In this document: positions 2,903 to 46,683 of the stretch, piece after piece
Position numbering within the stretch: position 1 is the first letter of the stretch
Layout of the letters: the number at the start of each line of letters is the position of its first letter
Origin: Candidatus Methanoperedens sp.
GTDB lineage: Archaea > Halobacteriota > Methanosarcinia > Methanosarcinales > Methanoperedenaceae
Direction of reading: 5' to 3'
DNA length: 46,683 nt
Assembly (NCBI GenBank): GCA_028717345.1
Contig: JAQUNZ010000005.1
Coordinates: 1-46,683, forward strand
Translations under genes and position numbers: made by a program
The notes under the pieces: model-generated
Told to the model about the DNA's origin: nothing
Seen by the model: only the letters and a program-made list of their open reading frames with translations
The model's database searches: none

Positions 2903-5245
2903 TTACTCTTTTTCTTCCGGCGTCTCTTCCCCTTTCTCCTTCCTGCTCCTTTTCTCTGCCTTTGCGCCCGCCTGCGAAGCAAAAACGTTCAGCAGATCGG
3001 TCAGCTTTTCATATTGTGCCGTTTCAATGTGAGAATACCGCAGCGGCTTCTTGTGCTTTCGTGTTTCTTTCTTAAGCTTCTTATACAGGTCATCAGAGCG
3101 CGAATTGAGCTTTTCATCAGTAGTACCCTCGATAAGCATTACACCTGTTGCGCCGTATTCAAAAGCAGCATTCACCACATCTGCATCAAGAACATGGATC
3201 GAGGGCAGGCTTATGAACCTGACAAGTGAAGAATACTGCTTCCGGTTCACTCCTGCAATATCAGCAGCTGCGTATGCATAGGGATCAATAAACACCACTA
3301 CTCCAGGCGCATCTTCCAGCATGGCTTTAAGCTGCGCCTTCAACTGGCTGCGCGTGAAGTTCCTGATCTCTATGCCTTTTATCGGGCATGCTGGAACGCA
3401 GATACCGCAGCCTGTACACGCCAGCGGCGACAGCACTGCTTTTCCGCCAGAAAGTGAGAGGGCATTGTAGGGGCATGCTTTCACGCAATCTCCGCACCCG
3501 TTGCACTCAAGTATCATGGGTTTTTCCGGCGGTATGAGTATCATTCCCTTGCCGAGGAACTGCGAGACCTTATGCGCAGCGCTCATGCCTTCTGTCACAG
3601 AATCATGAATGTCTTTTGGACCAAGTACGCAGCCTGCCGCAAATACAGCCTGGTTTAGCGTGTTCACAGGATCGAGCTTGACGTGCTTTTCTTCAATAAA
3701 TCCATCATCTCCAAGGGGCACACCAAGTTTATCAGCAAGCTCTTTTGTACCTGCAGAGGGAATAAGCGCAGGGCACAGGACTACCATGTCAAATATTTCA
3801 CGCCCTTTCCTGCCAAGGTTGGTGTCCTCGTACTGCACCATGAGCGTTCCGTCCTGCTTCGGTATTATCTCAGCCACTTTTCCGCGAACATAATTTACGC
3901 CCTTTTCCTGTGTATGGTGGTAGAATTCCTCAAACCGCCTCCCTGCAGAGCGCATGTCGATATAAAATATCCAGGCTTGCGCTTCAGCTTTCATTTTTTT
4001 CACAAGCTGAGCCTGCTTTTGCGAGTAAATGCAGCATACTTTTGAGCAGTGCTTTCTCCCTTTTCCTGTGAAATCGCGGCTTCCTGCGCACAGCACGAAA
4101 GCCACCCGCTCAGGGAACGACCCGTCTGCCTTTTGCAGCCTCATTCCTGTTTTGCTCTTTGCTGAGAGCATATCCTCAAATTCAACAGCAGTGAGCAGGT
4201 TTGGTGCAGGATAATTGTATTCCTCTATAAAAGATGGGTCGATAGGTTCAAAACCAGTAGCTATCGCAACAGCACCCACAGAGATCGTGCTGGTCTCTTC
4301 CTTTGCATCAAGGTTCACCGCATCGCGGGGACATATTTTAACACATGCGCCGCACCCCGAACATTTTGACATGTCTATTATATATGCCTGCGGGACTGCC
4401 TGGGCAAATGGCAGGAATATGGCTCCAGCAGGGCATTTCCTTGTGCATGCTCCACATGAAATGCATTTTTTGATATCCACATAGCGCGGGCTGTGTTTAA
4501 GGGTAATCGAGTAATCACCAGGACTTCCTTTCACCTGTGCCACTTCGGTCTGCGTATGCATCGTTATGCCAGGATGATTATGCACAGCTACCATCTTCGG
4601 AGTCAGAATGCACTGCGAACAGTCCATTGTTGGAAATGTCTTGGAAAGCCCTATCATGTGACCGCCAATGTAAGGCTGCTTTTCGATAAGAATAACTTCA
4701 TGGCCATCTGCAATTTCAAGCGCGGTTGTGATGCCGGCTATTCCCCCACCCACTACAAGCGTCCTATTGACAAGTTTCTTCTCAAGAGGCACAAGCGGCT
4801 CTATGGAACCCATGCGGGCTACAGCGCCTTTTATCAGTCCCTTTACTTTTGAATTAACGCTTTCCTTTCCCTCTTTATCATGCACCCAGCTTGCCTGCTC
4901 CCTGATGTTTGTGATCTCAAGGAGGGTTGGATTTGCGCCAGCTTTTTTCACCATCCCCCTGAAAGTCTCAAGATGCAGCTTTGGCGAACATGAACCAATT
5001 ACAACGCGGTCTATTTTTCCCTTTTCGATATCGCTTTTTATCTTATCCTGCCCCGCACTGCTGCAAAGGTAGTCCTGGATATTCACGATGACATTTTCAC
5101 CTTTTAAGCTCTCAGCGACAGACTGCAAGTCCACCACATCGCTAATGTTTCCCCCGCATCTGCACAGGTACACGCCGATCTTTTTTGGCGCCGGTTCTGT
5201 TTTTGCGGATGTTTCGTTCACCTGAGGCTTTTCGATTTCAGCCAT
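2903..5245 (-). CDS. hdrA: heterodisulfide reductase subunit A with C-terminal MvhD-like domain
   Basis: A 780-residue iron-sulfur flavoprotein, the electron-bifurcating core of soluble HdrABC. From the N-terminus: the HdrA-specific VYLCRCGGNISD and YLCSSAGQ; an FAD dinucleotide motif (VVGGGIAGITTA, about 164-175); the MDCSQC pair (207-212); two ferredoxin motifs (CISCGACTRKCP at 261, CSGCGACVKICP at 295); and two more near residues 590-630. The last 120 residues resemble MvhD, the [2Fe-2S] electron-entry subunit, but hold none of its cysteines. I start at the ATG at 5245, one base after the hdrB stop; the frame upstream lies inside hdrB. The fused layout resembles Methanosarcina HdrA2. The electron donor is not visible here. 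Confidence 0.93.
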   Translation of the reverse strand: MAEIEKPQVNETSAKTEPAPKKIGVYLCRCGGNISDVVDLQSVAESLKGENVIVNIQDYLCSSAGQDKIKSDIEKGKIDRVVIGSCSPKLHLETFRGMVKKAGANPTLLEITNIREQASWVHDKEGKESVNSKVKGLIKGAVARMGSIEPLVPLEKKLVNRTLVVGGGIAGITTALEIADGHEVILIEKQPYIGGHMIGLSKTFPTMDCSQCILTPKMVAVHNHPGITMHTQTEVAQVKGSPGDYSITLKHSPRYVDIKKCISCGACTRKCPAGAIFLPFAQAVPQAYIIDMSKCSGCGACVKICPRDAVNLDAKEETSTISVGAVAIATGFEPIDPSFIEEYNYPAPNLLTAVEFEDMLSAKSKTGMRLQKADGSFPERVAFVLCAGSRDFTGKGRKHCSKVCCIYSQKQAQLVKKMKAEAQAWIFYIDMRSAGRRFEEFYHHTQEKGVNYVRGKVAEIIPKQDGTLMVQYEDTNLGRKGREIFDMVVLCPALIPSAGTKELADKLGVPLGDDGFIEEKHVKLDPVNTLNQAVFAAGCVLGPKDIHDSVTEGMSAAHKVSQFLGKGMILIPPEKPMILECNGCGDCVKACPYNALSLSGGKAVLSPLACTGCGICVPACPIKGIEIRNFTRSQLKAQLKAMLEDAPGVVVFIDPYAYAAADIAGVNRKQYSSLVRFISLPSIHVLDADVVNAAFEYGATGVMLIEGTTDEKLNSRSDDLYKKLKKETRKHKKPLRYSHIETAQYEKLTDLLNVFASQAGAKAEKRSRKEKGEETPEEKE

Positions 5246-5246
5246 G

Positions 5247-6092
5247 TTACTTCCCTGCCTTTGCAATGAATATATCAGTCGAAACAAGATGTTTATCCAG
5301 CCCAAGCTCTTTTGGAGCAATACCCATAGCAAGACCAATGAGCTGCGTGAAATAAATGATGGGCATGTCTATTTTAATATTGTATTTTGCCTCGACAGCT
5401 TTCTGTTTTGCATCAAGCTGGAGATGGCACATCGGGCACGTCACGACCATGCAATCCGCGCCTGAATCTTTTGCCATCAAAAGAAGGTCTCTCGCAAGTT
5501 CAAGAGCAAGGTCTTCATTGGTTATCAATATCGGTCCTCCGCAGCATTTTGTCTTGTAATAGTATTTTACCGGCTCCGCCCCCAATGCAGCGATAAGGTA
5601 ATCCAGGGATTTTGGGTTTTCCGGGCTGTCGAATTTGTTCTCAGGTCTTGTGAGCAGGCAGCCGTAATACGGAACTGCTTTTATCTTCAAAGGCTTTTTT
5701 ACCTGTTCAGCCAGTTTTACAAGCCCAAGGTCTTTTACAATCACTTCAAGAAGATGCTTTGGTTTTGTATTTCCATCGTATTTGGTCGCAAGCGCTCCAT
5801 TGATCCTGATTTTAATCTCGCTATCTTCAAGTGCGGTATTGGCGCGCATGAGGTTTGAGTAACATAGGTTGCACGGGGTTGCGATGTCAAGACCTTTTGC
5901 TGCCGCCGCAAGTGTCCTTGCTGAAAGCCCGACACGCGTTGTCCGGTCGTCAACATGGAGAGCCCCGCAGCAGTTCCAGTTTTTTATTTCCTCAAGCTCA
6001 ATGCCAAGACGCTTGAATACCGCTTCCACAGAAATTCGTTGATCTATGGCTGTTCCGTGCTGCGCGCATCCGGGATAATAAGAATACTTCAT
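5247..6092 (-). CDS. hdrB: heterodisulfide reductase subunit B
   Basis: A 281-residue protein with two complete CCG domains, which bind the paired non-cubane [4Fe-4S] clusters that reduce the CoM-S-S-CoB heterodisulfide. Domain one has PGCAQHG, NWNCCGALHV and CNLCYSN. Domain two has YYGCLLTRPEN, KCCGGPILI and CPMCHLQLD. All cysteines are present. The start overlaps the hdrC stop by 4 bases, and hdrA begins right after the hdrB stop, so the three are one translationally coupled operon in the order C-B-A. Length and motifs are those of HdrB and HdrB2. Related CCG proteins occur in other oxidoreductases, but the HdrA and HdrC neighbours settle the assignment. Confidence 0.94.
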   Translation of the reverse strand: MKYSYYPGCAQHGTAIDQRISVEAVFKRLGIELEEIKNWNCCGALHVDDRTTRVGLSARTLAAAAKGLDIATPCNLCYSNLMRANTALEDSEIKIRINGALATKYDGNTKPKHLLEVIVKDLGLVKLAEQVKKPLKIKAVPYYGCLLTRPENKFDSPENPKSLDYLIAALGAEPVKYYYKTKCCGGPILITNEDLALELARDLLLMAKDSGADCMVVTCPMCHLQLDAKQKAVEAKYNIKIDMPIIYFTQLIGLAMGIAPKELGLDKHLVSTDIFIAKAGK

Positions 6093-6721
6093 TTTTCTGC
6101 CTCCTGACTGTCACTGTCATTTTCTTTTATTTCAGGCGGCTTTTCCTTGCTTTGCGTCTTCTCCTGTATCCCGGTTTTTTCACCGAGCCCAAAAATAGAG
6201 TCCAGTTCGCGCAGATCATCCATCTTATCAATAGACAGCGGCAATTTTCCTTTTGACATAAGTTCAAGGCCAAAAGGTACCTGCTTTATCATTCCAGGCT
6301 CGGAAATACTGTATTTTGAAATAAGTAGAAATTCAGATGCTCTGCCGTTCTTTTTGACCACATCCGCGAATATTTTATCGAATTTTGTATTCCTGTTCTT
6401 TATGCCTTCTTTCATGGCTATGGGCTTTAGCGTCTCCATGAGTTCTGTCGGGTATATCCCTCTTGGACAACGGACAGAACATGAAAAACAGGTCGTGCAG
6501 ATCCATATCGTGTTGCTGTTGAGCACTTCCTTCTTAAGACCCAGTTGTATCATGCGGACGATCTGCCGGGGTGTATAGTCCATTTCGTGGCTGACCGGGC
6601 AGGAGCCGGCGCAAACGCCGCACTGCATGCATGTGGGGATATTCTTGCCGCCGGGTGTTTTTATGATGAGGTCTCTAAAAGCAATATCTTTTGACTCTGG
6701 AATTATGGTCTCTTTTTGCAT
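6089..6721 (-). CDS. hdrC: heterodisulfide reductase subunit C
   Basis: A soluble ferredoxin-type subunit of about 210 residues with two [4Fe-4S] motifs: CMQCGVCAGSCP, and CTTCFSCSVRCP followed by PRGIYP. It carries electrons from HdrA to HdrB. The start may be the ATG at 6721 or a GTG at 6730. Neither has a good ribosome site, but a TATA box lies the right distance away for a leaderless transcript. It is the first gene of hdrCBA. The C-terminal 40 residues are charged (Lys/Glu-rich) and probably disordered. Length is slightly above the 185-190 usual for HdrC because of that tail. Confidence 0.93.
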   Translation of the reverse strand: MQKETIIPESKDIAFRDLIIKTPGGKNIPTCMQCGVCAGSCPVSHEMDYTPRQIVRMIQLGLKKEVLNSNTIWICTTCFSCSVRCPRGIYPTELMETLKPIAMKEGIKNRNTKFDKIFADVVKKNGRASEFLLISKYSISEPGMIKQVPFGLELMSKGKLPLSIDKMDDLRELDSIFGLGEKTGIQEKTQSKEKPPEIKENDSDSQEAEK

Positions 6722-6753
6722 ATTTATCACGTTGGAGGAAATGACACGAAGAT

Positions 6754-16272: not shown

Positions 16273-17193
16273 ATGGATTATATTCGCGATTTCGTGGCAG
16301 ACTGCCAGGCTCGAGGCCTGACAGCCCATACAATAGAGACCTACCGGAGCTGCCTCAAGGACTTCCTGGAATATCATCCTGATGCTGCTGCAGTAGGACT
16401 TGAGGAGCTGCGGGCTTACCTTGGTGAGCTCCGGATCCGGAACCTTGCAGGTAGCAGCCTGAAGGGATATTTCGCTTCCCTCTCAGCCTTCTATGAGTTC
16501 CAGGTCTTTTCTGGCTGCATGGCAGTCAATCCTGTAATTTCGTTCCGGAGGCGATATCTCCGGATCAAGGAACAACAGAACGGAGAGAATACCAGGCAGC
16601 TCCTGAGCGTGCAGCAGGTTCAGCTCCTCCTGGGTGCAGCTGCAGGCCTGCGGGAGAAGGCATTGATCCTTACGCTTGCGAAAACCGGAATGAGAAGGGG
16701 AGAACTTCTTTCCTTGCGTGTTCAGGACATCATCATCAAGGATGGGATTGTTCGTATAGCGCCGAAAGCAAAAAGGTCAAATAGACTCACTTTCATGGAC
16801 GAGGAGCTGAGGGATATCCTGGTTGCTTATCTCTCCTGGAGGGAAAGGCGAGCAAAAACGTCCTGGCTGTGGATCTCTGATCACGGAGGCAGGATCCACA
16901 AGGACGTACCTAACAGGATCCTTGCAGGCCTGGGGATATCCCTGGGACTGCATCAAAAAGAAGGACCCATATCTGAACGGCTGACCTGTCACTGCATGCG
17001 TCATTGGTTCACTACGCATCTTTTCCGGGCAGGAATGAACGTGGAGTATCTGAAATGGCTGAGAGGGGATGCTTTGAAAAAAGAGGCGTGGCAGATATAC
17101 AATCACATTGACATTGAGGAAGTGCGCCAGGAATATCTAAGGAGGATTCCGAAATTGATATCGTTTGATGAAAAATTAGCGAGGTACTTATAA
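16273..17193 (+). CDS. tyrosine recombinase (integrase), 306 aa
   Basis: A complete phage-type integrase. Residues 1-95 form the SAM-like core-binding domain (HTIETYRSCLKDFL). The catalytic domain has R141 (TGMRRGEL), H240-x-x-R243 in HCMRHWF, and nucleophile Y276 (QIYNHID). It cuts and rejoins DNA at att sites. An AAGGGGTGAT ribosome site precedes the ATG. It is clearly paralogous to the recombinase at 30434: both hold RIKEQxNGENTRQL, PKAKRxNRL and RHWFTTHL. It lacks that protein's winged-helix tail. It is the copy nearest attL. Confidence 0.93.
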   Translation: MDYIRDFVADCQARGLTAHTIETYRSCLKDFLEYHPDAAAVGLEELRAYLGELRIRNLAGSSLKGYFASLSAFYEFQVFSGCMAVNPVISFRRRYLRIKEQQNGENTRQLLSVQQVQLLLGAAAGLREKALILTLAKTGMRRGELLSLRVQDIIIKDGIVRIAPKAKRSNRLTFMDEELRDILVAYLSWRERRAKTSWLWISDHGGRIHKDVPNRILAGLGISLGLHQKEGPISERLTCHCMRHWFTTHLFRAGMNVEYLKWLRGDALKKEAWQIYNHIDIEEVRQEYLRRIPKLISFDEKLARYL

Positions 17194-26297: not shown

Positions 26298-27407
26298 ATG
26301 GCAAACCAAACAAGACTTTTGCTTCAAAAACAAGAGGCAAGAACAGAAACAGAAACAAATAAGATAAAAAGAGTATTCCTTGAGCCACTCCCAGAGCAGC
26401 GACGCCAAGCATCGGCAGTCATAGCATTGATGAATAATAAAGGCGGTGTCGGGAAAACATCCCTTTCCCTTGCGTTTGGACTCACGATGGCGCGAAAGAA
26501 TAAGAATGTATTATTCTGGGATAACGACGGGCAGTCAAACCTTACACAACGCCTGGGTGTTACTGACAACATGCTGCAAGAAAGGCGTGTTAACGTGGCG
26601 TTCACGTTGGCTCCTATTGCAGGCTCTAAAGAGAATATTCGCAACCTGCCATTCATATTAGATTATCCTTATTTCATGAGATATAGGGGTTCTACTGGAA
26701 AAGCTGGTCATATTGCTCTAATGGCAGGCAGTCATGATGCGGAACTAGATGCTAATGCGGCGTTCGGAAAGATGAATAGGGACCCTAGGGATTACAAAAA
26801 TATATTTGATTTCTTCAAACAAACCATGGATTTTTACCGCAATTACTTCGACTACATTATAATCGATACCGCGCCTGCTCTGGAAGGCAATATACTTAAT
26901 CAGATGAGTGTTCGCGCAGCAGATAATATAATCGTCCCTATCGATGCCCTGGAGGCTGCCTTGGGCATAGAGCAGCTTATTAAATGGATAGCCGGAGAGG
27001 CAAGCCCTGCAATAACAGGGCGGTTAATGCCACCTGATTTGCTATTCGCTATAGTCAAATACACTAAAGACACTGGAAATAAAAATGAGGTGAAGAACAC
27101 CATAGATATAGATGATAGACTTCGTAATAATGTCTATCGTGCTATAGAGAGTGTATTTGGGGAGTACGTGTGTAAAGAGGGTGTTAAAGCAAAACCAAGT
27201 CTAAAGTCAAAAGTCACCTTCAGAAAGACAGATTACGATGCTGTTGTCAACGAGCTTGAACAAAAGCTTGAGAATAAAGCCCGCCCGAATTTCTATACCA
27301 CCTGGAATATTGAAAAGGCAGATGAGCTTCGCAAATCGCTTGAAGTAATAGCAGAGAAAAACATAGCTAAGAAGCCTGTATTTAAGAATCCAAAATACAC
27401 GCTTTGA
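26298..27407 (+). CDS. parA: ParA-family partition ATPase, 369 aa
   Basis: The deviant Walker A KGGVGKTS (48-55) carries the signature lysine. It is followed by the Walker A' region (NVLFWDNDGQSNLTQRLG) and Walker B YIIIDTAPALEGN. Length and the roughly 40-residue N-terminal extension are common in plasmid ParA and Soj-like proteins. It would move or position the episome by ATP-dependent DNA binding. The gene has its own TATA-like box and probably no leader. Its partner gene follows after 6 bases. ParA on an integrated virus suggests a maintained extrachromosomal state. Confidence 0.92.
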   Translation: MANQTRLLLQKQEARTETETNKIKRVFLEPLPEQRRQASAVIALMNNKGGVGKTSLSLAFGLTMARKNKNVLFWDNDGQSNLTQRLGVTDNMLQERRVNVAFTLAPIAGSKENIRNLPFILDYPYFMRYRGSTGKAGHIALMAGSHDAELDANAAFGKMNRDPRDYKNIFDFFKQTMDFYRNYFDYIIIDTAPALEGNILNQMSVRAADNIIVPIDALEAALGIEQLIKWIAGEASPAITGRLMPPDLLFAIVKYTKDTGNKNEVKNTIDIDDRLRNNVYRAIESVFGEYVCKEGVKAKPSLKSKVTFRKTDYDAVVNELEQKLENKARPNFYTTWNIEKADELRKSLEVIAEKNIAKKPVFKNPKYTL

Positions 27408-30433: not shown

Positions 30434-31813
30434 ATGAGTATCGACATTAAGGATTTCCTGGAAGATTGCAGGTCAAGAAATTTGACAAATAAGACGATAG
30501 CGACCTACAAATCAAACGTTACCGAATATCTAAGGTTCGTTCAAAATCCTCTCAATGTTGATACTCTTAAACTCCGTAATTTCCTTGACTATTTGAAAAA
30601 TGATCTCGAATATAAGATCGGGAAGGTAGCCAAAAAAGGGGTATGTCCAAAGACGCTCAATGCTTATTTTTCAGCAATCCGCACCTATTACGATTACCTT
30701 GTTTATACCCGGCAGATCGACAATAACCCCGTCCTTCCATTCAGACAGCGTTATCTTTCAAGAATCAAGGAACAGCATAACGGAGAGAACACAAGGCAGC
30801 TTATCAGCATAGAGGACATGATCCAGCTCGTCACTCTGGATATGGCGATCCTGGATAGGGCTATCCTGATGATCCTGGCAAAGACCGGGGTAAGAAGGGG
30901 AGAACTCATAGCGATAGATCGGGAAAATCTCGACCTTGAGAAAAAAGAAATAATCCTGAAACCCAAAGCCAAAAGGACTAACAGGTTAGTGTTTTTTGAT
31001 GATGAAACAGTTTTAGTATTGAGGGCATACCTTGAATGGAGAAACAAAAGGACTAAGATGAAAGCTCTTTTCATCTCGCCAAAGGGTTTTAGAATCAATA
31101 GGGATGACATCAATCAGATAGTAGCCAGGCATGGCAGCCGGTTAGGTCTGCATGATCCAGAGGGCAGCCTTAACAAGAAGCTAACTCCACATTGCTTTAG
31201 ACACTGGTTTACCACTCATTTAAGAAGAAATGAGATGCCCAGGGAATTTATCCAGGAATTGCGCGGGGATCGGCGCACGGATGCCATAGACATCTATGAC
31301 CACATTGATCTATTAGAGTTAAAGGAACGCTATTCTGAGTGCATACCGAAGCTTTTAGAGGTTGACCAGAGGGTAACGGTTAGTCCTGGTTCTCAAGGGG
31401 TAACAGTTAGACCTGACAAGGGGGTAACAGTTAGACCTGACGAGGGGGTAACAGTTAGACCTGACGAGGGGGTAACAGTTAGACCTGATGAGAGGGTAAC
31501 AGTTAGACCTGATGAGAGGGTGACAGTTAAACAAGACCAGAGAGGCAAACATAAGCACGATATCTATGGATTCAGTTTAACACTCTATGAGTATGTCAAA
31601 AGACATGAAGGCTTATCCACAGCGTCAATAAGCAAGTATTTTTTCAAAAATAAAGACTACGTCAAGCAATATTTGTATCGGTTAAAGGATTACGGACTTA
31701 TCTTAAACGATAGGGGTAACTGGTATCCGACTTCAAAAAAGCCGATAGCAGAAACGTATTTTATCAATTCAACAGAGCGATCAAAAGCCGTTTTAACAGA
31801 AGGGATAGCATGA
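30434..31813 (+). CDS. tyrosine recombinase with winged-helix tail, 459 aa
   Basis: A full tyrosine recombinase (residues 1-315) with R154 (TGVRRGEL), H253-x-x-R256 in HCFRHWF, and nucleophile Y288 (DIYDHID). It is a paralogue of the integrase at 16273. Next comes a linker of seven tandem units, mostly VTVRPDEG, each encoded by 24 bases. A C-terminal winged-helix module follows (SLTLYEYVKRHEGLSTASIS, then LKDYGLILNDRGNWYPTSK). The tail is shared with the otherwise distant recombinase at 31941. Such a tail would add DNA-binding specificity or control. Its stop overlaps the next start. Confidence 0.9.
   Translation: MSIDIKDFLEDCRSRNLTNKTIATYKSNVTEYLRFVQNPLNVDTLKLRNFLDYLKNDLEYKIGKVAKKGVCPKTLNAYFSAIRTYYDYLVYTRQIDNNPVLPFRQRYLSRIKEQHNGENTRQLISIEDMIQLVTLDMAILDRAILMILAKTGVRRGELIAIDRENLDLEKKEIILKPKAKRTNRLVFFDDETVLVLRAYLEWRNKRTKMKALFISPKGFRINRDDINQIVARHGSRLGLHDPEGSLNKKLTPHCFRHWFTTHLRRNEMPREFIQELRGDRRTDAIDIYDHIDLLELKERYSECIPKLLEVDQRVTVSPGSQGVTVRPDKGVTVRPDEGVTVRPDEGVTVRPDERVTVRPDERVTVKQDQRGKHKHDIYGFSLTLYEYVKRHEGLSTASISKYFFKNKDYVKQYLYRLKDYGLILNDRGNWYPTSKKPIAETYFINSTERSKAVLTEGIA
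31373..31540 (+). repeat. seven 24-bp coding repeats in the recombinase linker
   Basis: In-frame direct repeats with core ggggtaacagttagacctga encode VTVRPDEG and variants. Neighbouring copies are almost identical, so copy number is probably unstable by slippage or unequal exchange, changing linker length without breaking the frame. Confidence 0.85.
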
Positions 31814-31944
31814 TCTGCATTTTGAGATCCTGTTGGGTTTTCAATGAATTTGTGCCTGGTTTTGATATCATTGTGTATAATAAACGTGACCTCATTGAAA
31901 AGGCAAGAACGTGGTGCCCTGAAAGAATAGAGAGGATAGCATGA
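31810..31944 (+). CDS. 44-aa gene linking two recombinases
   Basis: This tiny frame starts with an ATG inside the stop of the upstream recombinase and ends inside the start of the downstream one (ATGA at both junctions). The product reads MICILRSCWVFNEFVPGFDI, then NKRDLIEKARTWCPERIERI, with a helical basic C-terminus and three cysteines. The double coupling argues for real translation. It could be an excision or directionality factor, though no family supports this. Confidence 0.6.
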   Translation: MICILRSCWVFNEFVPGFDIIVYNKRDLIEKARTWCPERIERIA

Positions 31945-33260
31945 CCTCTGAAAAAGAATACTCGAAGACAATAGAAAAAACCCTCTCGGATTCCAGGATA
32001 AGCAAATCTAACCTTGAAATTCTCAAGTATTACGATTCTCAAGGTAAATTACAACAACAGATAACGTTAGGGACCCGGGTAGTTCGACTTAATATCATCA
32101 GGCAGCTTGCATTATTCTTGGGTTCCAAGAATTTCAAGGATGTAACAAAAGAGGATATAGAGGCTTTCATTTTATCACGTGGGGAATGGCAGCCTAAGAC
32201 CTGGTCAACCAATGGTGCATACATCAAATTCTTCTTTAAATGGCTCAATAACTCGGATGAATATCCATCTAATGTAAAATGGATAAAGACCTCAATGAAG
32301 AGCAAAAACCGTAAACTGCCATCGGATTTACTCACACTGGATGAAATTAAAGCGATGGCAAAAGCCGGTAATCCAATGGAGAGGGCTTTCATAAAGGTTC
32401 TTTATGAAAGTGCTTGCAGGATCGGGGAAATTCTCAATCTTAAAATCAAAGATGTTTCTGTTGATCAATACGGAAGTGCTTTAATGGTAGATGGTAAAAC
32501 AGGGATGCGGAGAATCAGGTTAATAGATTCCTCTCCCGATCTTGTTTTGTGGATTGACAAACATCCAAAAAAGCATGACAGGGATTCATGCCTTTTTATT
32601 CAAAACCACTCTAAAACCGATTGCAAAGGGCTTACTGATTCTTATGCAGATACTATACTAATCAAACTTGTCAAATCGGCAGGAATAAAAAAGCATGTTC
32701 ACCCTCATCTTTTCAGGCACAGCAGATTAACGGAATTAGCCAGGGATTTTTCAGAATCAGAGCTTAAAGTGATAGCGGGATGGTCAGGCAATAGCAATAT
32801 GGCAGCGGTTTATGTCCATCTTAGCGGTGGGGATATTGAAAAAAAGATGCTTGAGAGAAGGGGATTACTGAATAAAGAGAATGACAATTTAACGCTTGGG
32901 AGGGTATCAGTTAGTCCTGGTCGTCCTCAAGGGGTGAAAGTATCTCCAGAGCCAGGGATGAAAGTATCTCCGGATCAGAGGGTAAAAGAAATTTCAGAGG
33001 AGTTAACAGAATTTCCCTTTCAAAAGTTAACACTAATTCACCGTAAACCAGGCAGACCTCCAAAAATTATTCAGGGATTTACCTTATCACTTTATAAATT
33101 TATCAAGAAACATGAAGGAGTATCAATATCAGAAATTAGTGATATTTCCCTCAAAAAAAAGGAATCGGTAAAGCCTATTTTATCTCGATTGAAGAATTAC
33201 GGATTTATCATGAACTCTAAAGGTAATTGGTATCCTACATCAAAAGAACTAATACCGTAA
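31941..33260 (+). CDS. second tyrosine recombinase with winged-helix tail, 439 aa
   Basis: A XerC/D-like archaeal recombinase (residues 1-310) with R160 (SACRIGEIL), H256-x-x-R259 in HPHLFRHS, and nucleophile Y291 (AAVYVHLSG). It is only distantly related in its catalytic part to the two other tyrosine recombinases. After a shorter repeat linker (VSVSPGRPQG, VKVSPEPG, MKVSPDQR) it has the same winged-helix tail (SLYKFIKKHEGVSISEIS, then LKNYGFIMNSKGNWYPTSK). It is third in the coupled operon. The two might work as a heteromeric pair. Confidence 0.9.
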   Translation: MTSEKEYSKTIEKTLSDSRISKSNLEILKYYDSQGKLQQQITLGTRVVRLNIIRQLALFLGSKNFKDVTKEDIEAFILSRGEWQPKTWSTNGAYIKFFFKWLNNSDEYPSNVKWIKTSMKSKNRKLPSDLLTLDEIKAMAKAGNPMERAFIKVLYESACRIGEILNLKIKDVSVDQYGSALMVDGKTGMRRIRLIDSSPDLVLWIDKHPKKHDRDSCLFIQNHSKTDCKGLTDSYADTILIKLVKSAGIKKHVHPHLFRHSRLTELARDFSESELKVIAGWSGNSNMAAVYVHLSGGDIEKKMLERRGLLNKENDNLTLGRVSVSPGRPQGVKVSPEPGMKVSPDQRVKEISEELTEFPFQKLTLIHRKPGRPPKIIQGFTLSLYKFIKKHEGVSISEISDISLKKKESVKPILSRLKNYGFIMNSKGNWYPTSKELIP

Positions 33261-33693: not shown

Positions 33694-34218
33694 GTGATCT
33701 TCATCTCTGGGTTGATTGCTGCTCCGAAGGATCCTGCCAGTTCGCGGATATCTGCGGCGTATATGAGGGTCTCGACAGAGGAGCAGGACCTGAGCCTGCA
33801 GGAGGACGCAATACGAGGTTCTGGAGCAAATAGGACATACAAAGACAAGGAGAGCGGGATGAACGTAAGCCGGGAGGCTTATGTGTGGCTCTGTAGAGAC
33901 ATTAGGGAGGGAAGGATATCAGAGGTCATAGTCTACAGGTTGGACCGGCTCGGACGGGATCCAGTGGAACTGGTCCGTTTTTTCATGGAACTCCTGGAAA
34001 AATACCAGGTGAAATTCAGATCCCTGACAGAGCCGTGGCTTACCCGGTGGAACGAAGGACCTATGGAGTTTCAGATGTGGTGGAACCAAGTTGGATATGC
34101 CAGGTTCGAGCTTCTCCTCCTGAAGGACAGGCAGCGCAGGGGAATAGCGGCAGCCAGGGCGAGAGGGAAGCATCTGGGGAGACCAAGAAAAAAAAGTGAC
34201 GCCCAGACAGGGAATTAA
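33694..34218 (+). CDS. serine recombinase (resolvase family), 174 aa
   Basis: The N-terminal catalytic domain carries AAYMRVSTEEQDLSLQ with nucleophile S27, the conserved ESGMNVSR region and VIVYRLDRLGRDP. The C-terminus ends in a basic tail (RQRRGIAAARARGKHLGRPR), the usual start of a resolvase DNA-binding region. The family's final helix-turn-helix is missing, so the protein may be short or use an alternative contact. It starts at GTG with a GAGG site and lies 100 bases inside attR. It could act in dimer resolution or integration. Confidence 0.87.
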   Translation: MIFISGLIAAPKDPASSRISAAYMRVSTEEQDLSLQEDAIRGSGANRTYKDKESGMNVSREAYVWLCRDIREGRISEVIVYRLDRLGRDPVELVRFFMELLEKYQVKFRSLTEPWLTRWNEGPMEFQMWWNQVGYARFELLLLKDRQRRGIAAARARGKHLGRPRKKSDAQTGN

Positions 34219-39659: not shown

Positions 39660-39999
39660 TTAGTACCACTGCTGAATAGAGAAATGTTTGTTTATATATA
39701 TTTTTGCATGCTCCGATACATCGGGTTATTCAAAATATTCATCAGGTTTGTTGTCAAAAGTTGGGGTAAAATTTGGGTCAATAATAGTCTCACATAAACA
39801 CGAAATTCTTGATTGCTTCAAAAAGTATATGTTCTATGTGATATATTATGCATGATAATTATAATATATATAATGTGTTGTGTGATAACCAATTTTGAAA
39901 AGATATGTAACATACTGAAAAATTAAACGTATCGAATGAGGGCTTGACATAATAATGTGTCCTGAAAAAAAAGGTCATATGGCGTAAAAAAATTTGGGC
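39660..39999. other. A/T-rich intergenic region with divergent promoters
   Basis: The left side carries the TATA-like box of the minus-strand YIP1-hydrolase operon. The right side carries ataatatatataatg at 39861-39875, a TATA candidate for the cytochrome gene that would leave a leader of about 100 bases. Two in-frame stops (at 39985) rule out a longer cytochrome start. I see no small gene. Confidence 0.55.
39861..39875 (+). promoter_or_regulatory. putative TATA box of the giant cytochrome gene
   Basis: The run ataatatatataatg would start transcription near 39895-39900, about 100 bases before the ATG. The leader contains no clear ribosome site near the start codon. Confidence 0.4.
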
Positions 40000-42900
40000 A
40001 TGACAATTAATTATCGATATACACAAATTAATTGGGTCAGAACAGCAGGAGCTTTCGCCTTTGTGCCAATCATCATAGTGGGGCTGCTATTTCTTGGTAT
40101 TGGTATTGAGAATGCCAGCCAATCTGAATTAATCCCTGATGCAGGATTAAATATCTCAAACGCCACGACAAATATCACAGCCGGGGAAACTCAAGTCTTA
40201 GTTCATTCAAATTCAGAGGTGCAAGGAGAAGACCATGTCACAGTATCCGATAAAATAGTAGTTCGTGACACTAGAAAAATGCAGGTTAAAAGCAACATCA
40301 TAGCAATAAACTTGAAAAAAGAGATCAGTACTGGCATGCTGGCAACTGCAGATTTCCCCGATGGCGGAGAGCTTGTGGTTGATGCTCTTGAAAACAAGAA
40401 CGTGTCTGTGAGGTTGAAGATTAAAGGAGTGGATAAGGGAGAGTTTGTCCTTGATGATTTCGGGAAGAATAATCCTGAATCTGTTCTACTTCCAGGCAGG
40501 GTTGTGAAATATGTGGAAATTGGCGCAAGGGGTATCTTGTTTTCTTCTGCTGAAATAACAATACGCTACACAGGTGCTGATTTAAACGGCGGGAGTGAAA
40601 ATGACCTTACCATTTACCACTGGAACGGCACTTCATGGGATGCATTACCTACGACCGTAGATGCGACGAACAATGTGCTTACGGCAACCACAACCTCGCT
40701 CTCGTCATTCGGGGTTGCAACGCGCTTAATTAATTATCTGGAAAACAATGAGGCTGGAGCAAATATCACGAACACCACCACGACATATCTTTCCCAGGAT
40801 GAATTGAAAACAAAAGGTGTGGCTGTAAAACTTAAATTAAATAAACGGGGCAATGGTCAGATAATAATCGAAGATCATGGAAAAAAGAATCCTGTAGCAT
40901 CTGCACCGCCTGGAAATAGCATCAAGTTCGTTGACATAAGCGCAACAGATAATAGTTTTGAATCAGCAGAGGTCAGGATAAAATATACTGATGAAGAGCT
41001 TGGGGGAGCGGATGAAAATACGCTTGTCATTTACCACTGGAACGGGGCGGCATGGGATGCGCTGCCGACAATGGTGGATGCAGGGAATAATGTGCTGACT
41101 GCGACAACGAACTCACTGTCGCCATTTGCAGTATCCGGGGGAGATGCAGGTGATACGACATTAATAGTATCCGTAAACAGGTTTGTAGTATTGGATGATC
41201 CGCTAACTACCGGGAAAACTGCGCAGACGGGTTTTGCTCTACCAGCTTTTACTGGCTGGAGCACTAATCAATGGAGTGGTAATCAAACACAAATTAAAGG
41301 GTACGCTTTGTTACTGGATAAAAATGGTTCTTCCATCAGTAACACAAATGTCACATTCAATATAAGTAACTGGAATGCTTCTTTCACAAATATATCAAAT
41401 GTTAGCACAAACTCGAATGGAATTGCAATTTATACTTTTGATATGAATGCAAGGAATTATTATGGCAACTGGACTGTTAAAGCCACAGCACTTGGTAAGA
41501 CTGATTCAACTGGATTTATCTATAACTGGTGGGGATGTCAGGCAGGAGGCTGTGAGGATCATGGAATTAGGTCTGTAGGTACCGCGACCCCTTCAATCCA
41601 AAATTCACCATATACATTAGGGCGAGAGACAATTACGGCCGATACCAACCATAACAGTATTACTGATAATGATTGTGTAGGATGCCATCGTGGATATGGG
41701 GGTGTAGGTGGCGGAAGTACATTCACAGGACAATCAACAAAGACCGCTGATGTCCATATAACGAATACATGTGCAACTTGCCATGCTACCATTGCCACTC
41801 ATGATACAAATGAACCGATCAAATCCTGCAGTGATTGTCATTCATGGGCAAACCTGACGAAAGAATATACTATGAGTAGCGGGACTACTCCTATGAGCAA
41901 TTATTCAGGTATGGTCGCTGCCACAGGTCATGATCCCAATAATACTATTCCATGCATAATTTGCCATGGCCCAATGCACAACATAACCAAACCAGATGAG
42001 TCCTTGCGACCTAATAACAACAATATCACAGAGGATTCACACTGCACGACATGCCACACAAGCTATAATAAACATAATTCAAGTAATATCACATCAGGCG
42101 GCGTTAACTGCACTCTTTGCCACAGTCAGGATATACATTACATACAGGTATTCGCACAAAATAGCACAGGCGCCACATATGTAAACACGACCAGCAATTC
42201 AAGGGGCAACTGCACCCTGTGCCACCAGAATGGAACATTTTTCGCATCATTAAAAAATGCTTCCAAAGCAGGCAATTATATTGGTCGTCCTCCTCCTCAA
42301 GTCCAGACCCCGGTAAGACACAGCAACAACGCAAGCAACGGCAGCAGATGGAACTCAACAGAAAATTACTGGAACCGCAGCAGTCAGGTCACTTTATGCA
42401 GATACTGCCACGGCGAGACGAATCACAAATCTGTCGCCCTGGGCAGACCATCCACATGGGACGGGAACAACGTCGTAAATTCAACTATCGGCAACACAAC
42501 CTGGTGCACAGGATGCCACTGGCAGGGATACAGCAATGGCAGCAGCAGATACCTGGACATGATCAATAATGTTACTGATGACCACAGGAATATCTCATCG
42601 TCTGCTGGTTATAATCTCTCCATACCGCCTGAGATCACAGGCAATAACACATACGGCGCCAGCACCTCGAACTACGAATACACGAACCATTCTCTTTATA
42701 CTCCATTTTCATCCAACCTGAACGATTCAGCATGCAACCGGTGTCACGGCTATCAGTATGGCTTCACCAGAATTACCCAGCTTATGCACAACCAGAGTAG
42801 TGTTGGAGGACCTGATTGTGTGGGCTGCCATGATATTGGAGGTATTGTTCTTTTATCAAAGATTGATGTGACAGCAACAAATGATACAAATGCCATACAC

Positions 42901-45900
42901 AAGAACCTGAACAGCAATGCCACTGCCACCGTGGATTCCAACAATAGAAGATGCTGGGCATGTCATGGGAACGGGAGTGCGCCGTCACCAAACACTCATC
43001 CCACAAATTATAAGACCCCATACAATTGCACAGATTGCCATGTACAGGGCGCAGGTCAGAATTTCAATTATACTCCAAACAACACGTTACTGAATGTATC
43101 GCAGCATTACTGGAATGGCGCATCTATTAAAACCACAGCTGTCAGCACATGTTACACCTGCCATATTAAATCCGAGATGATGATCGCTGCAAATGATCCG
43201 GATGCGGGAACCGGTGCGGTATATTCAGGTGCAAACGGTGGCAACAACAGCACAAGCCATTATGGTAAAAAGAGAACAGATCTTCATACATGGAACGGAA
43301 GTCAGGCAGTCAACTGCAGTTACTGCCACCAGAACATAAGCACAGTCTTCAATACTGCAATGCTTGATCAAGCATATAACAAATCGATCCAGAACCACAG
43401 TGCTTTAGCATCATCTCCATCATGTCTCAATTCAAGCTGTCACAACTCAGGATGGATACACAACAGCACACTTACAAAACCGTCATTGGTATTACCCAAT
43501 TCTACATACTGCACATCTTCATGTCACGGCACCGGGGGAAGTGCTTTCTTAACAAATAATAAATCACAGCATAACGGTACCGTGTCTTGCACGCAATGCC
43601 ACATGAACTCAAGCAGGAGCATCCACCCTGTCCGATACCTCCAGAACATCAATAACACATGGAACACTTCAAATACAAATGCCGTCAACTGTACTAACTG
43701 TCACCAGAATATAACATTCTGGACAGGTTCCCCCGCTGCTCCGCTCATCCCTGACCCGCTGAAACACAGTTCCAATCTGTCAAACGGCAGTATCTGGAAC
43801 AGCACCTCCACCCCGTTCTGGACAACCGAAGACGGTTCATGCTACTACTGCCACGGAAACACCAAACACAATTCAACAGCTTTTGGCAGAATAAATTCCC
43901 TTACGACCGATCCATCCGATGTCAGGAACGGATCACTCGTCACAACCAGATGGTGCGTGGACTGCCATTACAATGATACGGCAAATAGCTATTATAATGG
44001 CAATCAATGGACCCCGACTCCCCCGCTCATCACGGTCAACAATACGAATAATGCCATGTGGCAGAACCACAGCAGCTATCTGGGCAGTGGATACAATGAC
44101 ACTACTTGTGAATCATGCCATGCCCTCAACGGTTCAACCCTGCATACATCCCGGAATTACAGCCACAGCCTTGATGAAGGCGTTGCAGGAGGTCCGGACT
44201 GTAAAAGCTGCCATGATACAGGCGGTTCAGCCGGAGGCGGAGGAAAACTGGTAAACTTCACAGCTATGAACGATACCAATGCCCTCCACAAGACCCTCAA
44301 CAGCAATACCAGCTCAGGCATCTACTCCGCAGAAAACAAGAAATGCTGGGCATGCCACGGCAATGGCAATAACCCGGTAAGCAGTCACCCCACGAATTAC
44401 AAGAGTCCATCCAAATGCGTGGACTGCCATGTGAATAGAACGAACCTGAACTATACGCCAAATTCAACTCTCTTGAACGTCACCGAGCATTACTGGAATG
44501 GGACCGACATAGCCCCTAACATAACAACGTGCTACAATTGCCATAACAAGAGCGAAATGATGCTGGGCACGGCACTTGACCCCGATGGTGCAGGCAGCGT
44601 ATACAGTGGTTCAAACGGCGGGAACAACAGCTCAAGCCATTACGGCAGGAAGAGAACAGACCTGTCAGTCTTGAACAGCAGCATAAATAATACATACTGT
44701 ATTTACTGCCACAACAATGCATCAACAGTTTTCCCCTTCACCGACATTGCCAACAAATCAATATCCAACCATTCAGCCAATTATCCAGGGACAAATCCGC
44801 TCTGCTCCAGTTCCGCCTGTCATTCGACAGGCAGGATACACAACAGCACACTTACAAAACCGTCATTGGTATTACCCAATTCTACATACTGCACATCTTC
44901 ATGTCACGGCACCGGGGGAAGTGCTTTCTTAACAAATAATAAATCACAGCATAACGGTACCGTGTCTTGCACGCAATGCCACATGAACTCAAGCAGGAGC
45001 ATCCACCCTGTCCGATACCTCCAGAACATCAATAACACATGGAACACTTCAAATACAAATGCCGTCAACTGTACTAACTGTCACCAGAATATAACATTCT
45101 GGACAGGATCACCCCCCGCCCCCCTCATCCCCTCAGTCCTCAAACACTCTTCCAATTCAAACAACGGCAGTATCTGGAACGCAAGCACAACCCCCTACTG
45201 GACATCCAACAACGCTTCATGCTACTACTGCCACGGAAACACCAAACACAACACAACCGCACTGGGCTCGATCAATTCCCTTCTGACAGACCTCAACAAT
45301 ACCAGGAACGGCACACTCTCAAATACCAAATGGTGTTCAGACTGTCACCTCAATACCAGCTTAAACAGTAATTACAGCGGCACTATCTGGACCCCTGTTC
45401 CCCCCCTGATCACAATAGACAACACAGGAAAAAGTACCTGGGTAAACCACAGTTCCTACTTCGGGTCAGGAATAAAAGACAGTACATGCAGTGCCTGCCA
45501 TGCCCAGCCAGGCAATTACGCATCCACATCACTCAACTATTCCCACAGTCTTGATCCGGGCACATCAGGCCCTGACTGTATCTCATGCCACGATACTGGA
45601 AAACTCGCCCGGAAGAGAATCAACAATTCAGCCATGAACAGCAGCACTTCAGTTCACAGGACCCTGAACTCCAATGCATCCAACTCAACCTGGGTCTCAG
45701 CAGAAAACAAGAAATGCTGGGGCTGTCATGATTCCACAGGCACCCAGCCATCCAATGACAGTATGGGAAGCAGGTACACCAATCCCTACACATGTTACGA
45801 CTGCCACAACTCCACATCCAAACCGTACTCCAACGTCAGCACTGCCCCCAACGTAAGTGAACATTTCAAAGGCGGTGACCAGATAAGAGCCGCAGCATCC

Positions 45901-46683
45901 GCAGCAGACAACTCCTCATCCTGTCTGGTCTGCCATAACCTGAGCGAACTGAAAGTAAGTTACACAGAAGATGATCTTTCCTCCAATTCCTCCTCCCTCT
46001 CCTCCCACTACGCAAGGAACAGGACAGACCTGAGAACATGGAACGCAAATCAGGCAGTGAACTGCAGTTACTGTCACCAGAACAGCACAACATTATTCGC
46101 ATCAGCCATGTCAGATTCATCATACAACAGTTCCATCCTGAACCACAGCACAGGCACAGGCTCCCCATCCTGTTTCAATTCCACATGTCACGGTTCGGGC
46201 TGGATCCATAACAGCACACTCACACGACCCTCGTTCAGTTTACCCAACTCCACATATTGTACCTCATGCCACACCGGAAAACAAAGACACAACGGATCCA
46301 CAGGCATGAACTGTACGTCATGCCACATCAACAGTTCAGGCAGAGATACCATCCATCCCATAAAATACCTTCAGGCAAACAGTTCCTTCCAGACCACAAA
46401 CACCAGTGCAGTCAACTGTACCAACTGTCACCAGACCTCCTCATTCTGGACAGGATCACCCCCCGCCCCCCTCATCCCCTCAGTCCTCAAACACTCTTCC
46501 AATTCAAGCAACGGCAGTATCTGGAACTCAAGCACAACCCCCTACTGGACATCCAGCAACGCTTCATGCTACTACTGCCACGGAAACACCAAACACAACA
46601 CAACCGCACTGGGCTCGATCAATTCCCTTCTGACAGACCTCAACAATACCAGGAACGGCACACTCTCAAATACCAAATGGTGT
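40000..46683 (+). CDS. giant multiheme c-type cytochrome (partial, runs off the window)
   Basis: One frame is open from the ATG at 40000 to the last base (2,228 codons). An N-terminal hydrophobic segment (FAFVPIIIVGLLFLGIGI, residues 20-37) looks like a signal or anchor. Residues about 148-240 and 288-385 are two copies of a beta domain containing LTIYHWNGTSWDALPT. From residue 559 I count 44 complete haem motifs: 39 CxxCH, three CX4CH and two CX3CH. Motifs 8-19, 20-31 and 32-43 form three 12-haem repeats. The protein is rich in Asn-x-Ser/Thr, so it is probably exported and glycosylated. The likely role is long-range electron transfer out of the cell. Confidence 0.95.
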   Translation, partial: MTINYRYTQINWVRTAGAFAFVPIIIVGLLFLGIGIENASQSELIPDAGLNISNATTNITAGETQVLVHSNSEVQGEDHVTVSDKIVVRDTRKMQVKSNIIAINLKKEISTGMLATADFPDGGELVVDALENKNVSVRLKIKGVDKGEFVLDDFGKNNPESVLLPGRVVKYVEIGARGILFSSAEITIRYTGADLNGGSENDLTIYHWNGTSWDALPTTVDATNNVLTATTTSLSSFGVATRLINYLENNEAGANITNTTTTYLSQDELKTKGVAVKLKLNKRGNGQIIIEDHGKKNPVASAPPGNSIKFVDISATDNSFESAEVRIKYTDEELGGADENTLVIYHWNGAAWDALPTMVDAGNNVLTATTNSLSPFAVSGGDAGDTTLIVSVNRFVVLDDPLTTGKTAQTGFALPAFTGWSTNQWSGNQTQIKGYALLLDKNGSSISNTNVTFNISNWNASFTNISNVSTNSNGIAIYTFDMNARNYYGNWTVKATALGKTDSTGFIYNWWGCQAGGCEDHGIRSVGTATPSIQNSPYTLGRETITADTNHNSITDNDCVGCHRGYGGVGGGSTFTGQSTKTADVHITNTCATCHATIATHDTNEPIKSCSDCHSWANLTKEYTMSSGTTPMSNYSGMVAATGHDPNNTIPCIICHGPMHNITKPDESLRPNNNNITEDSHCTTCHTSYNKHNSSNITSGGVNCTLCHSQDIHYIQVFAQNSTGATYVNTTSNSRGNCTLCHQNGTFFASLKNASKAGNYIGRPPPQVQTPVRHSNNASNGSRWNSTENYWNRSSQVTLCRYCHGETNHKSVALGRPSTWDGNNVVNSTIGNTTWCTGCHWQGYSNGSSRYLDMINNVTDDHRNISSSAGYNLSIPPEITGNNTYGASTSNYEYTNHSLYTPFSSNLNDSACNRCHGYQYGFTRITQLMHNQSSVGGPDCVGCHDIGGIVLLSKIDVTATNDTNAIHKNLNSNATATVDSNNRRCWACHGNGSAPSPNTHPTNYKTPYNCTDCHVQGAGQNFNYTPNNTLLNVSQHYWNGASIKTTAVSTCYTCHIKSEMMIAANDPDAGTGAVYSGANGGNNSTSHYGKKRTDLHTWNGSQAVNCSYCHQNISTVFNTAMLDQAYNKSIQNHSALASSPSCLNSSCHNSGWIHNSTLTKPSLVLPNSTYCTSSCHGTGGSAFLTNNKSQHNGTVSCTQCHMNSSRSIHPVRYLQNINNTWNTSNTNAVNCTNCHQNITFWTGSPAAPLIPDPLKHSSNLSNGSIWNSTSTPFWTTEDGSCYYCHGNTKHNSTAFGRINSLTTDPSDVRNGSLVTTRWCVDCHYNDTANSYYNGNQWTPTPPLITVNNTNNAMWQNHSSYLGSGYNDTTCESCHALNGSTLHTSRNYSHSLDEGVAGGPDCKSCHDTGGSAGGGGKLVNFTAMNDTNALHKTLNSNTSSGIYSAENKKCWACHGNGNNPVSSHPTNYKSPSKCVDCHVNRTNLNYTPNSTLLNVTEHYWNGTDIAPNITTCYNCHNKSEMMLGTALDPDGAGSVYSGSNGGNNSSSHYGRKRTDLSVLNSSINNTYCIYCHNNASTVFPFTDIANKSISNHSANYPGTNPLCSSSACHSTGRIHNSTLTKPSLVLPNSTYCTSSCHGTGGSAFLTNNKSQHNGTVSCTQCHMNSSRSIHPVRYLQNINNTWNTSNTNAVNCTNCHQNITFWTGSPPAPLIPSVLKHSSNSNNGSIWNASTTPYWTSNNASCYYCHGNTKHNTTALGSINSLLTDLNNTRNGTLSNTKWCSDCHLNTSLNSNYSGTIWTPVPPLITIDNTGKSTWVNHSSYFGSGIKDSTCSACHAQPGNYASTSLNYSHSLDPGTSGPDCISCHDTGKLARKRINNSAMNSSTSVHRTLNSNASNSTWVSAENKKCWGCHDSTGTQPSNDSMGSRYTNPYTCYDCHNSTSKPYSNVSTAPNVSEHFKGGDQIRAAASAADNSSSCLVCHNLSELKVSYTEDDLSSNSSSLSSHYARNRTDLRTWNANQAVNCSYCHQNSTTLFASAMSDSSYNSSILNHSTGTGSPSCFNSTCHGSGWIHNSTLTRPSFSLPNSTYCTSCHTGKQRHNGSTGMNCTSCHINSSGRDTIHPIKYLQANSSFQTTNTSAVNCTNCHQTSSFWTGSPPAPLIPSVLKHSSNSSNGSIWNSSTTPYWTSSNASCYYCHGNTKHNTTALGSINSLLTDLNNTRNGTLSNTKWC
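42397..46683 (+). repeat. 12-haem tandem repeat units in the cytochrome
   Basis: Unit starts, taken at the first haem cysteine of the recurring CxYCHGxTxH block, are 42397, 43840, 45220 and 46567. The periods are 1443, 1380 and 1347 bases (481, 460 and 449 codons). The fourth unit is cut by the window end. Identity rises toward the right; units 2 and 3 share a 274-base stretch without a difference (43454-43727 and 44834-45107). Confidence 0.9.

What the first reader, a model, noticed from the sequence alone, without database searches (positions are those of the whole stretch)
40000..46683. Giant cytochrome built from 12-haem repeat units, with recent gene conversion
In the single frame from 40000 I count 44 haem motifs before the window ends. 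Motifs 8-19, 20-31 and 32-43 align one to one, so the gene grows by a unit of 12 haems and 449-481 codons. A 274-base block is identical between units 2 and 3 (43454-43727 and 44834-45107), at synonymous positions too. The end of the window (from 46448) nearly repeats 45101-45350. This points to ongoing unequal exchange or conversion that could change haem number, and thus conductive length, between strains.
Basis: partly seen in the sequence, partly recalled or inferred. Interest (0 to 1): 0.8.

Follow-up and report, generated by a model that had tools for sequence, protein, structure and literature searches.

The report
Archaeal cytochrome growing by 12-haem cassettes
A Methanoperedens archaeon (a relative of methane eaters) carries one very large electron-carrying protein with about 80 or more iron haems, built from copies of a 12-haem block that are still being duplicated and copied over one another, so that related species differ in haem number by whole blocks of 12.

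Summary
The frame from 40000 has 44 haem motifs; motifs 8-19, 20-31 and 32-43 are homologous 12-haem units; the 274-base tract is exact while its surroundings are saturated. The window ends at a 100-N scaffold gap. Both flanks of the gap repeat exactly 127 bases found elsewhere in the gene, the mark of a k=127 de Bruijn graph broken at a repeat. The simplest path adds a further unit, keeps frame, and gives 3948 codons and 68+12n haems (at least 80), ending in an S-layer domain and a C-terminal membrane helix. This is an S-layer conduit like ANME MHC type A, in Ca. Methanoperedens; its clade includes the published 113-haem record holder. What appears new is the growth rule. Clade members follow 20+12n haems (20, 32, 44, about 56, at least 80; the record holder, about 120, only roughly). 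Two sister species at one locus differ by one 1350-bp unit. Six other cytochrome genes have fresh exact repeats (155-1286 b) about one unit apart. Each unit has 12 motifs plus 12 conserved other histidines, fitting an all-bis-His wire. Variation lies only on the side of the S-layer predicted to face outwards. Within-strain variation and conductivity remain untested.

The parts
40000..46683 (+). Giant multihaem cytochrome gene, 5' part; it continues beyond the window across a 100-N gap (46684-46783) to a stop at scaffold position 50962
   Evidence: open frame with 44 motifs; minimal graph fill keeps frame, 3948 codons, 80 motifs
40000..41673 (+). Haem-free N-terminal region: hydrophobic segment near 40033-40095, PGF-pre-PGF domain, weak Ig-like match
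41674..42366 (+). 7-haem cap (motifs 1-7); its later part matches the end of the 12-haem unit
42367..43809 (+). 12-haem unit 1 (motifs 8-19, 481 codons)
43810..45189 (+). 12-haem unit 2 (motifs 20-31, 460 codons)
45190..46536 (+). 12-haem unit 3 (motifs 32-43, 449 codons); closest outside relative is unit 2 of a paralogue on contig 25
46537..46683 (+). Start of unit 4 (motif 44), cut by the scaffold gap
43454..43727 (+). Copy 1 of the 274-b identical tract (end of unit 1)
44834..45107 (+). Copy 2 of the 274-b identical tract (end of unit 2), 1380 b = 460 codons further on
45095..45336 (+). Unit 2/3 junction, repeated at 46442-46683 with 3 mismatches in 242
46442..46683 (+). Unit 3/4 junction, copy of 45095-45336 at 1347 b
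45210..46435 (+). Repeat edge R of the assembly graph (1226 b, exactly motifs 32-43): its first 127 b recur at the pre-gap end, its last 127 b at the post-gap start

Best explanation
It is an S-layer electron conduit (like ANME MHC type A) of a Ca. Methanoperedens archaeon whose outer arm is an array of a 12-haem cassette. Shown by sequence: the order along the chain is N-terminal hydrophobic segment, haem-free PGF-pre-PGF region, 7-haem cap, n cassettes of 12 haems (here at least 5, one of them inferred across the gap), 8-haem partial cassette, S-layer domain with one haem motif in its linker, 4 haems, C-terminal hydrophobic helix. Haem number in the clade follows 20+12n, with small deviations. 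Cassettes are duplicated, lost and partly overwritten in register and in frame. Inferred: this happens by homologous unequal crossing over and gene conversion between cassettes, occasionally between paralogous genes. The C-terminal helix holds the protein in the membrane, 4 haems lie under the S-layer, one in its plane, and the 8+12n+7 haems run outwards as a bis-His-ligated, heavily glycosylated wire, so that cassette number sets outward reach or charge capacity and not S-layer crossing.
For: Frame, motifs and units. Gap fill from the k=127 graph keeps frame and gives 80 motifs. S-layer domain PF07752, solved relative MA0829 at E 2.5e-4, linker haem CYLCH and hydrophobic ends, as described for type A (PMC9012536). 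Clade series of 20, 32/33, 44, 57, at least 80 and 120 motifs. Sister species L063 and L064 differ by one 1350-b unit in a conserved locus. Exchange tract with dS 0 inside saturated surroundings. Fresh one-unit repeats in six other genes. Inner units cluster by gene, first units by position. 12 conserved non-motif His per 12 motifs; 232 N-glycosylation sequons against 97 in shuffles. An expressed relative: the 113-haem protein of Ca. M. manganireducens, reported highly expressed on Mn(IV) (PMC7082337).
Against: Unit 4 rests on an assembly-graph argument, not on read-through sequence. No conserved neighbours between the window's gene and its clade relatives were found, so strict orthology is shown only for pairs such as L063/L064. 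The 113-haem protein (120 motifs by my wider pattern) and two genes with one extra motif do not fit 20+12n exactly. No structure, so a continuous haem chain and the outward orientation are inferred. Some large MHCs of the family were reported as weakly expressed on Fe(III) (PMC7327174).
Confidence: 0.74

Rival explanations
1. The identical blocks and the unit count are short-read assembly artefacts: one unit has been copied into several places by the assembler, or strains with different unit numbers were merged.
For: The window ends at a scaffold gap with 127-base overlaps on both sides, and tracts of 274 b exceed k=127.
Against: Units 1, 2, 3 and 5 differ strongly from each other (45-62% aa identity), so they are not copies made by the assembler. 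Both 274-b copies have unique flanks. Independent assemblies of other species show the same one-unit repeats and unit ladder. Only the identity of unit 4 with unit 3 depends on the graph.
Confidence: 0.1
2. The array is mainly an electron store (a capacitor) or a surface binding or adhesive protein, and the number of haems has little to do with wire length.
For: One haem per 40 residues over about 3200 residues gives a large redox capacity; the N-terminus has PGF-pre-PGF and a weak Ig-like match.
Against: All 12 sites per unit look bis-His and recur regularly, as in electron-transfer cytochromes; an S-layer domain with a linker haem implies transport across the wall. Storage and conduction are not exclusive.
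Confidence: 0.25
3. Unit number is selectively neutral: tandem homology makes unequal crossing over unavoidable, and array length drifts without functional meaning.
For: A subclade stays at 20 haems and a sister clade at 23, apparently with the same S-layer role; no correlation of unit number with an electron acceptor was tested.
Against: All 12 haem sites and 12 distal His columns are kept in most units and frames stay open over about 4000 codons, so each unit is under constraint, though this does not show that their number matters.
Confidence: 0.35

Closest known systems
ANME MHC type A, S-layer multihaem cytochromes (Chadwick et al. 2022, PMC9012536)
   Same: S-layer domain with one haem motif in the linker, C-terminal membrane helix, tens of haems
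   Different: Carries a haem-free PGF-pre-PGF N-terminal region and an expandable array of 12-haem units; the passages read describe no such unit or growth rule
113-haem S-layer cytochrome of Ca. Methanoperedens manganireducens MnB_21 (Leu et al. 2020, PMC7082337; VEPN01000036)
   Same: Same clade by the C-terminal tree, same N-terminal and S-layer parts, same 12-haem units
   Different: More units and partial units (113 CxxCH, 120 motifs in all), a duplicated N-terminal segment; no tract longer than 64 b
Dodecahaem cytochrome GSU1996 of Geobacter (lead from own knowledge; papers listed, not read)
   Same: 12 haems in a modular chain, described as a periplasmic nanowire
   Different: From own knowledge built of four trihaem c7 domains; here 12 haems are one repeat unit, and no such chain appears among PDB profile matches
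MtrC/MtrF/UndA outer-surface decahaem cytochromes
   Same: Weak profile similarity: Pfam PF22113 in several stretches, UndA E 2e-5 and MtrF E 4e-4
   Different: Single bacterial decahaem proteins, no tandem 12-haem array or S-layer domain; far below the NCBIfam family cut-off
Tandem repeats in Borg proteins (PMC9879509)
   Same: Recently formed in-frame tandem repeats in the same biological setting
   Different: Borg repeats are reported to form disordered regions and to be virtually absent from Methanoperedens genomes; here the repeat is a 450-codon haem-bearing unit in a Methanoperedens genome assembly

Membership tests
ANME MHC type A (S-layer conduit) | S-layer domain | tested here: met
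   PF07752 E 5e-9 in the post-gap part; profile match to MA0829 E 2.5e-4
ANME MHC type A (S-layer conduit) | single haem motif in the linker between the two S-layer halves | tested here: met
   CYLCH at residue 3501 stands alone, 141 residues after and 208 before the next motifs, just after the matched S-layer stretch
ANME MHC type A (S-layer conduit) | C-terminal transmembrane helix | tested here: met
   hydropathy 1.73 over residues 3918-3936 near the end of the chain; no dedicated predictor was run
ANME MHC type A (S-layer conduit) | 20-80 haem-binding sites | tested here: met
   71 motifs seen (44 before and 27 after the gap), at least 80 with the minimal fill
ANME MHC type B | N-terminal peptidase M6-like domain | tested here: not met
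   only Ig-like and PGF-pre-PGF matches in the N-terminal region
ANME MHC type C | pectin lyase-type N-terminal domain and no S-layer domain | tested here: not met
   no pectin lyase match; S-layer domain present
MtrC/OmcA decahaem family (TIGR03507) | score above the curated family cut-off | tested here: not met
   36 bits against a cut-off of 209
Polymeric cytochrome nanowires (OmcS/OmcE/OmcZ/archaeal ECN) | subunits that polymerise with haems continuous from subunit to subunit | not testable with these tools
   no PDB match with one unit, none of these among the profile matches; structure model too weak

The most novel reading that the evidence does not exclude
Cassette number is a rapidly mutable, possibly population-variable trait: cells of one species differ in the number of 12-haem blocks, so recombination tunes the reach or capacity of the outer wire in quanta of 12, a contingency-locus-like mechanism for extracellular respiration.
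Probability: 0.3. Interest if true: 0.87.

Novelty: new variant of a known kind. Interest (0 to 1): 0.64.

Why it matters
How cytochromes with up to about 100 haems arise has, as far as I could find, lacked a demonstrated unit and mechanism. A 20+12n rule, a one-unit difference between sister species and fresh exchange tracts make the question directly testable: count cassettes in long reads, relate them to electron acceptor, and solve one cassette instead of a 430-kDa protein. It also warns that short-read genomes may under-count haems in these genes, because identical cassettes collapse or break assemblies.

Tried and rejected
AlphaFold of one unit with 59 rows: pLDDT 56, only residues about 131-210 and a few later blocks above 70; PDB fold search without hits; the second fold job was not used because coordinates are not returned. 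Single-unit phmmer against the PDB: none. Synteny of the flanking genes (diphthamide synthase, hydrolase, Yip1, SLFN-TPR) with clade members: no hit. Truncation by a stop or frameshift: not supported. The idea that the genome is HGW-1 (reported 69-haem MHC, PMC7082337) was considered and rejected, since HGW-1 is reported to have no S-layer MHC (PMC7327174). The tblastx comparisons were too noisy to use and were replaced.

Full report
What is in the window. The frame 39988-46683 has no stop, starts most plausibly at ATG 40000, and holds 44 haem motifs (39 CxxCH, 2 CxxxCH, 3 CxxxxCH). Motifs 8-19, 20-31 and 32-43 form three homologous units of 481, 460 and 449 codons.

The window ends at an assembly gap. 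The window is the first 46683 bases of a 62985-base scaffold. Bases 46684-46783 are 100 N. The 127 bases before the gap equal 45210-45336, and the 127 bases after it equal 46309-46435, both exactly and no longer. The scaffold's own 3' end shares exactly 127 bases with the end of another contig. This is the signature of a de Bruijn assembly with k=127. The graph reads A-R-B-[gap]-R-C with R = 45210-46435, which holds exactly motifs 32-43. The shortest path repeats R once more: 45337-46308 (972 b, 324 codons) fills the gap, the frame stays open, and the chain is 3948 codons with 80 haem motifs ending at a stop at 50962. The loop may be traversed more often, so haems = 68+12n with n of at least 1. 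Unit 4 is therefore inferred and, if real, nearly identical to unit 3.

Anatomy of the whole protein. N-terminal hydrophobic segment; haem-free region with a PGF-pre-PGF domain and a weak Ig-like match; 7 haems; five 12-haem units; 8 haems matching the first two thirds of a unit; an S-layer domain (PF07752; solved relative MA0829) with one haem motif in its linker; 4 haems; C-terminal hydrophobic helix. 7+60+8+1+4 = 80. These are the features given for ANME MHC type A (PMC9012536).

Every unit looks like a full set of bis-His haems. In 18 units from 8 genes there are 12 motif histidines and exactly 12 further histidine columns present in at least 60% of rows, 9 of them invariant. The protein has 232 N-glycosylation sequons against a mean of 97 in shuffles.

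Recent exchange. Between units 1 and 2, identity outside the tract is mostly 0.36-0.68 with dS mostly above 1 or saturated; inside the 274 bases it is 1.0. The longest identical run is 90 codons; 5000 column shuffles never exceed 15. The unit 2/3 and 3/4 junctions share 242 bases with 3 mismatches. Units 3/4 are nearer to a unit of a paralogous gene on contig 25 of the same genome (nt identity 0.78, dS 0.84) than to units 1, 2 or 5 of their own gene, although the S-layer ends of the two genes lie in different clades. This suggests that units also move between paralogues; differential loss of old units would be the alternative.

Haem number changes by twelves. In the C-terminal tree the window's gene lies in a supported clade of 14. 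Its intact members have 20 haems and no full unit (five genes), 32 or 33 and one, 44 and two, 57 and three, at least 80 and five or more, and 120 with at least six full units plus partial ones. The 120-motif gene is the published 113-haem record holder of Ca. M. manganireducens, reported as highly expressed during Mn(IV)-dependent methane oxidation (PMC7082337). The sharpest case is L063 (32 haems) and L064 (44): 86% and 88% identical in the N-terminal part and unit 1, 77% in the C-terminal part, shared downstream genes (inverted as a block), and a single extra segment of 1350 b, one unit, in L064, with a 32-b overlap at the junction. A sister clade without the N-terminal region has 23 haems in all 8 intact members.

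It is general in the order. The unit profile matches 52 of 150 genomes of the order at E 1e-40 or better, in 12 of 24 genera. Fresh exact repeats about one unit apart occur in other genes: 1286 b at 1350, 704 at 1380, 211 at 1341, 155 at 1293, and in a genome of another family of the order (G079) 203 at 1434 and 308+222 at 1464. Some of those contigs could also be affected by assembly. The unit tree shows the two patterns expected of unequal exchange: the first unit keeps positional orthology across species, while several inner units cluster by gene.

How it most likely works. Shown: modular array, in-frame unit gain or loss, exchange tracts, constant S-layer and C-terminal part. Inferred: unequal crossing over and conversion between homologous cassettes; C-terminal anchoring; 4 haems below, 1 within and all variable haems outside the S-layer. 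On this reading the wall crossing is fixed, and evolution alters only the outward arm. Not shown: haem-to-haem contact, conductivity, expression here, variation within a strain.

Novelty. Papers read report the family and its large haem numbers. In searches of the held library I found no description of a 12-haem growth unit, the 20+12n series, or conversion in these genes. Most subscription papers are not held, so this is a statement about that library only.

Noticed in passing
whole genome G000 (also G011 = nzgw23 and G022 = STD1_6): Methyl-CoM reductase alpha and gamma are not found in these three genomes (95-96% complete), whereas 24 of 31 genus genomes have gamma; MtrA and Mch are present. 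Either the mcr contig was lost in binning or these carriers of the expanded cytochrome are not methanotrophs.
   Followed up: partly
16273-17193, 30434-31813, 31941-33260, 33694-34218, 26298-27407: Three tyrosine recombinases, a resolvase and a ParA-like ATPase between ordinary genes: the middle of the window looks like an integrated mobile element or several.
   Followed up: no
L055 and L131 (G006:C7): One locus holds several giant cytochromes in a row (2848-2934 codons); one of them has fresh repeats at 765 b and 1530 b, a shorter unit than here.
   Followed up: no
L065, C-terminal 110 residues: The cytochrome of nzgw23 ends in a TPR-like segment after its membrane helix; in the window's scaffold a separate SLFN/TPR gene follows the cytochrome.
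   Followed up: no
scaffold C5 3' end (62859-62985, outside the window): The last 127 bases recur at 98-100% identity at seven other places, several of them contig ends: a repeated element that breaks the assembly.
   Followed up: no
2903-6730: HdrA-like iron-sulphur flavoprotein with a FlpD-like domain next to HdrB- and HdrC-like genes: a possible electron-bifurcating complex.
   Followed up: no
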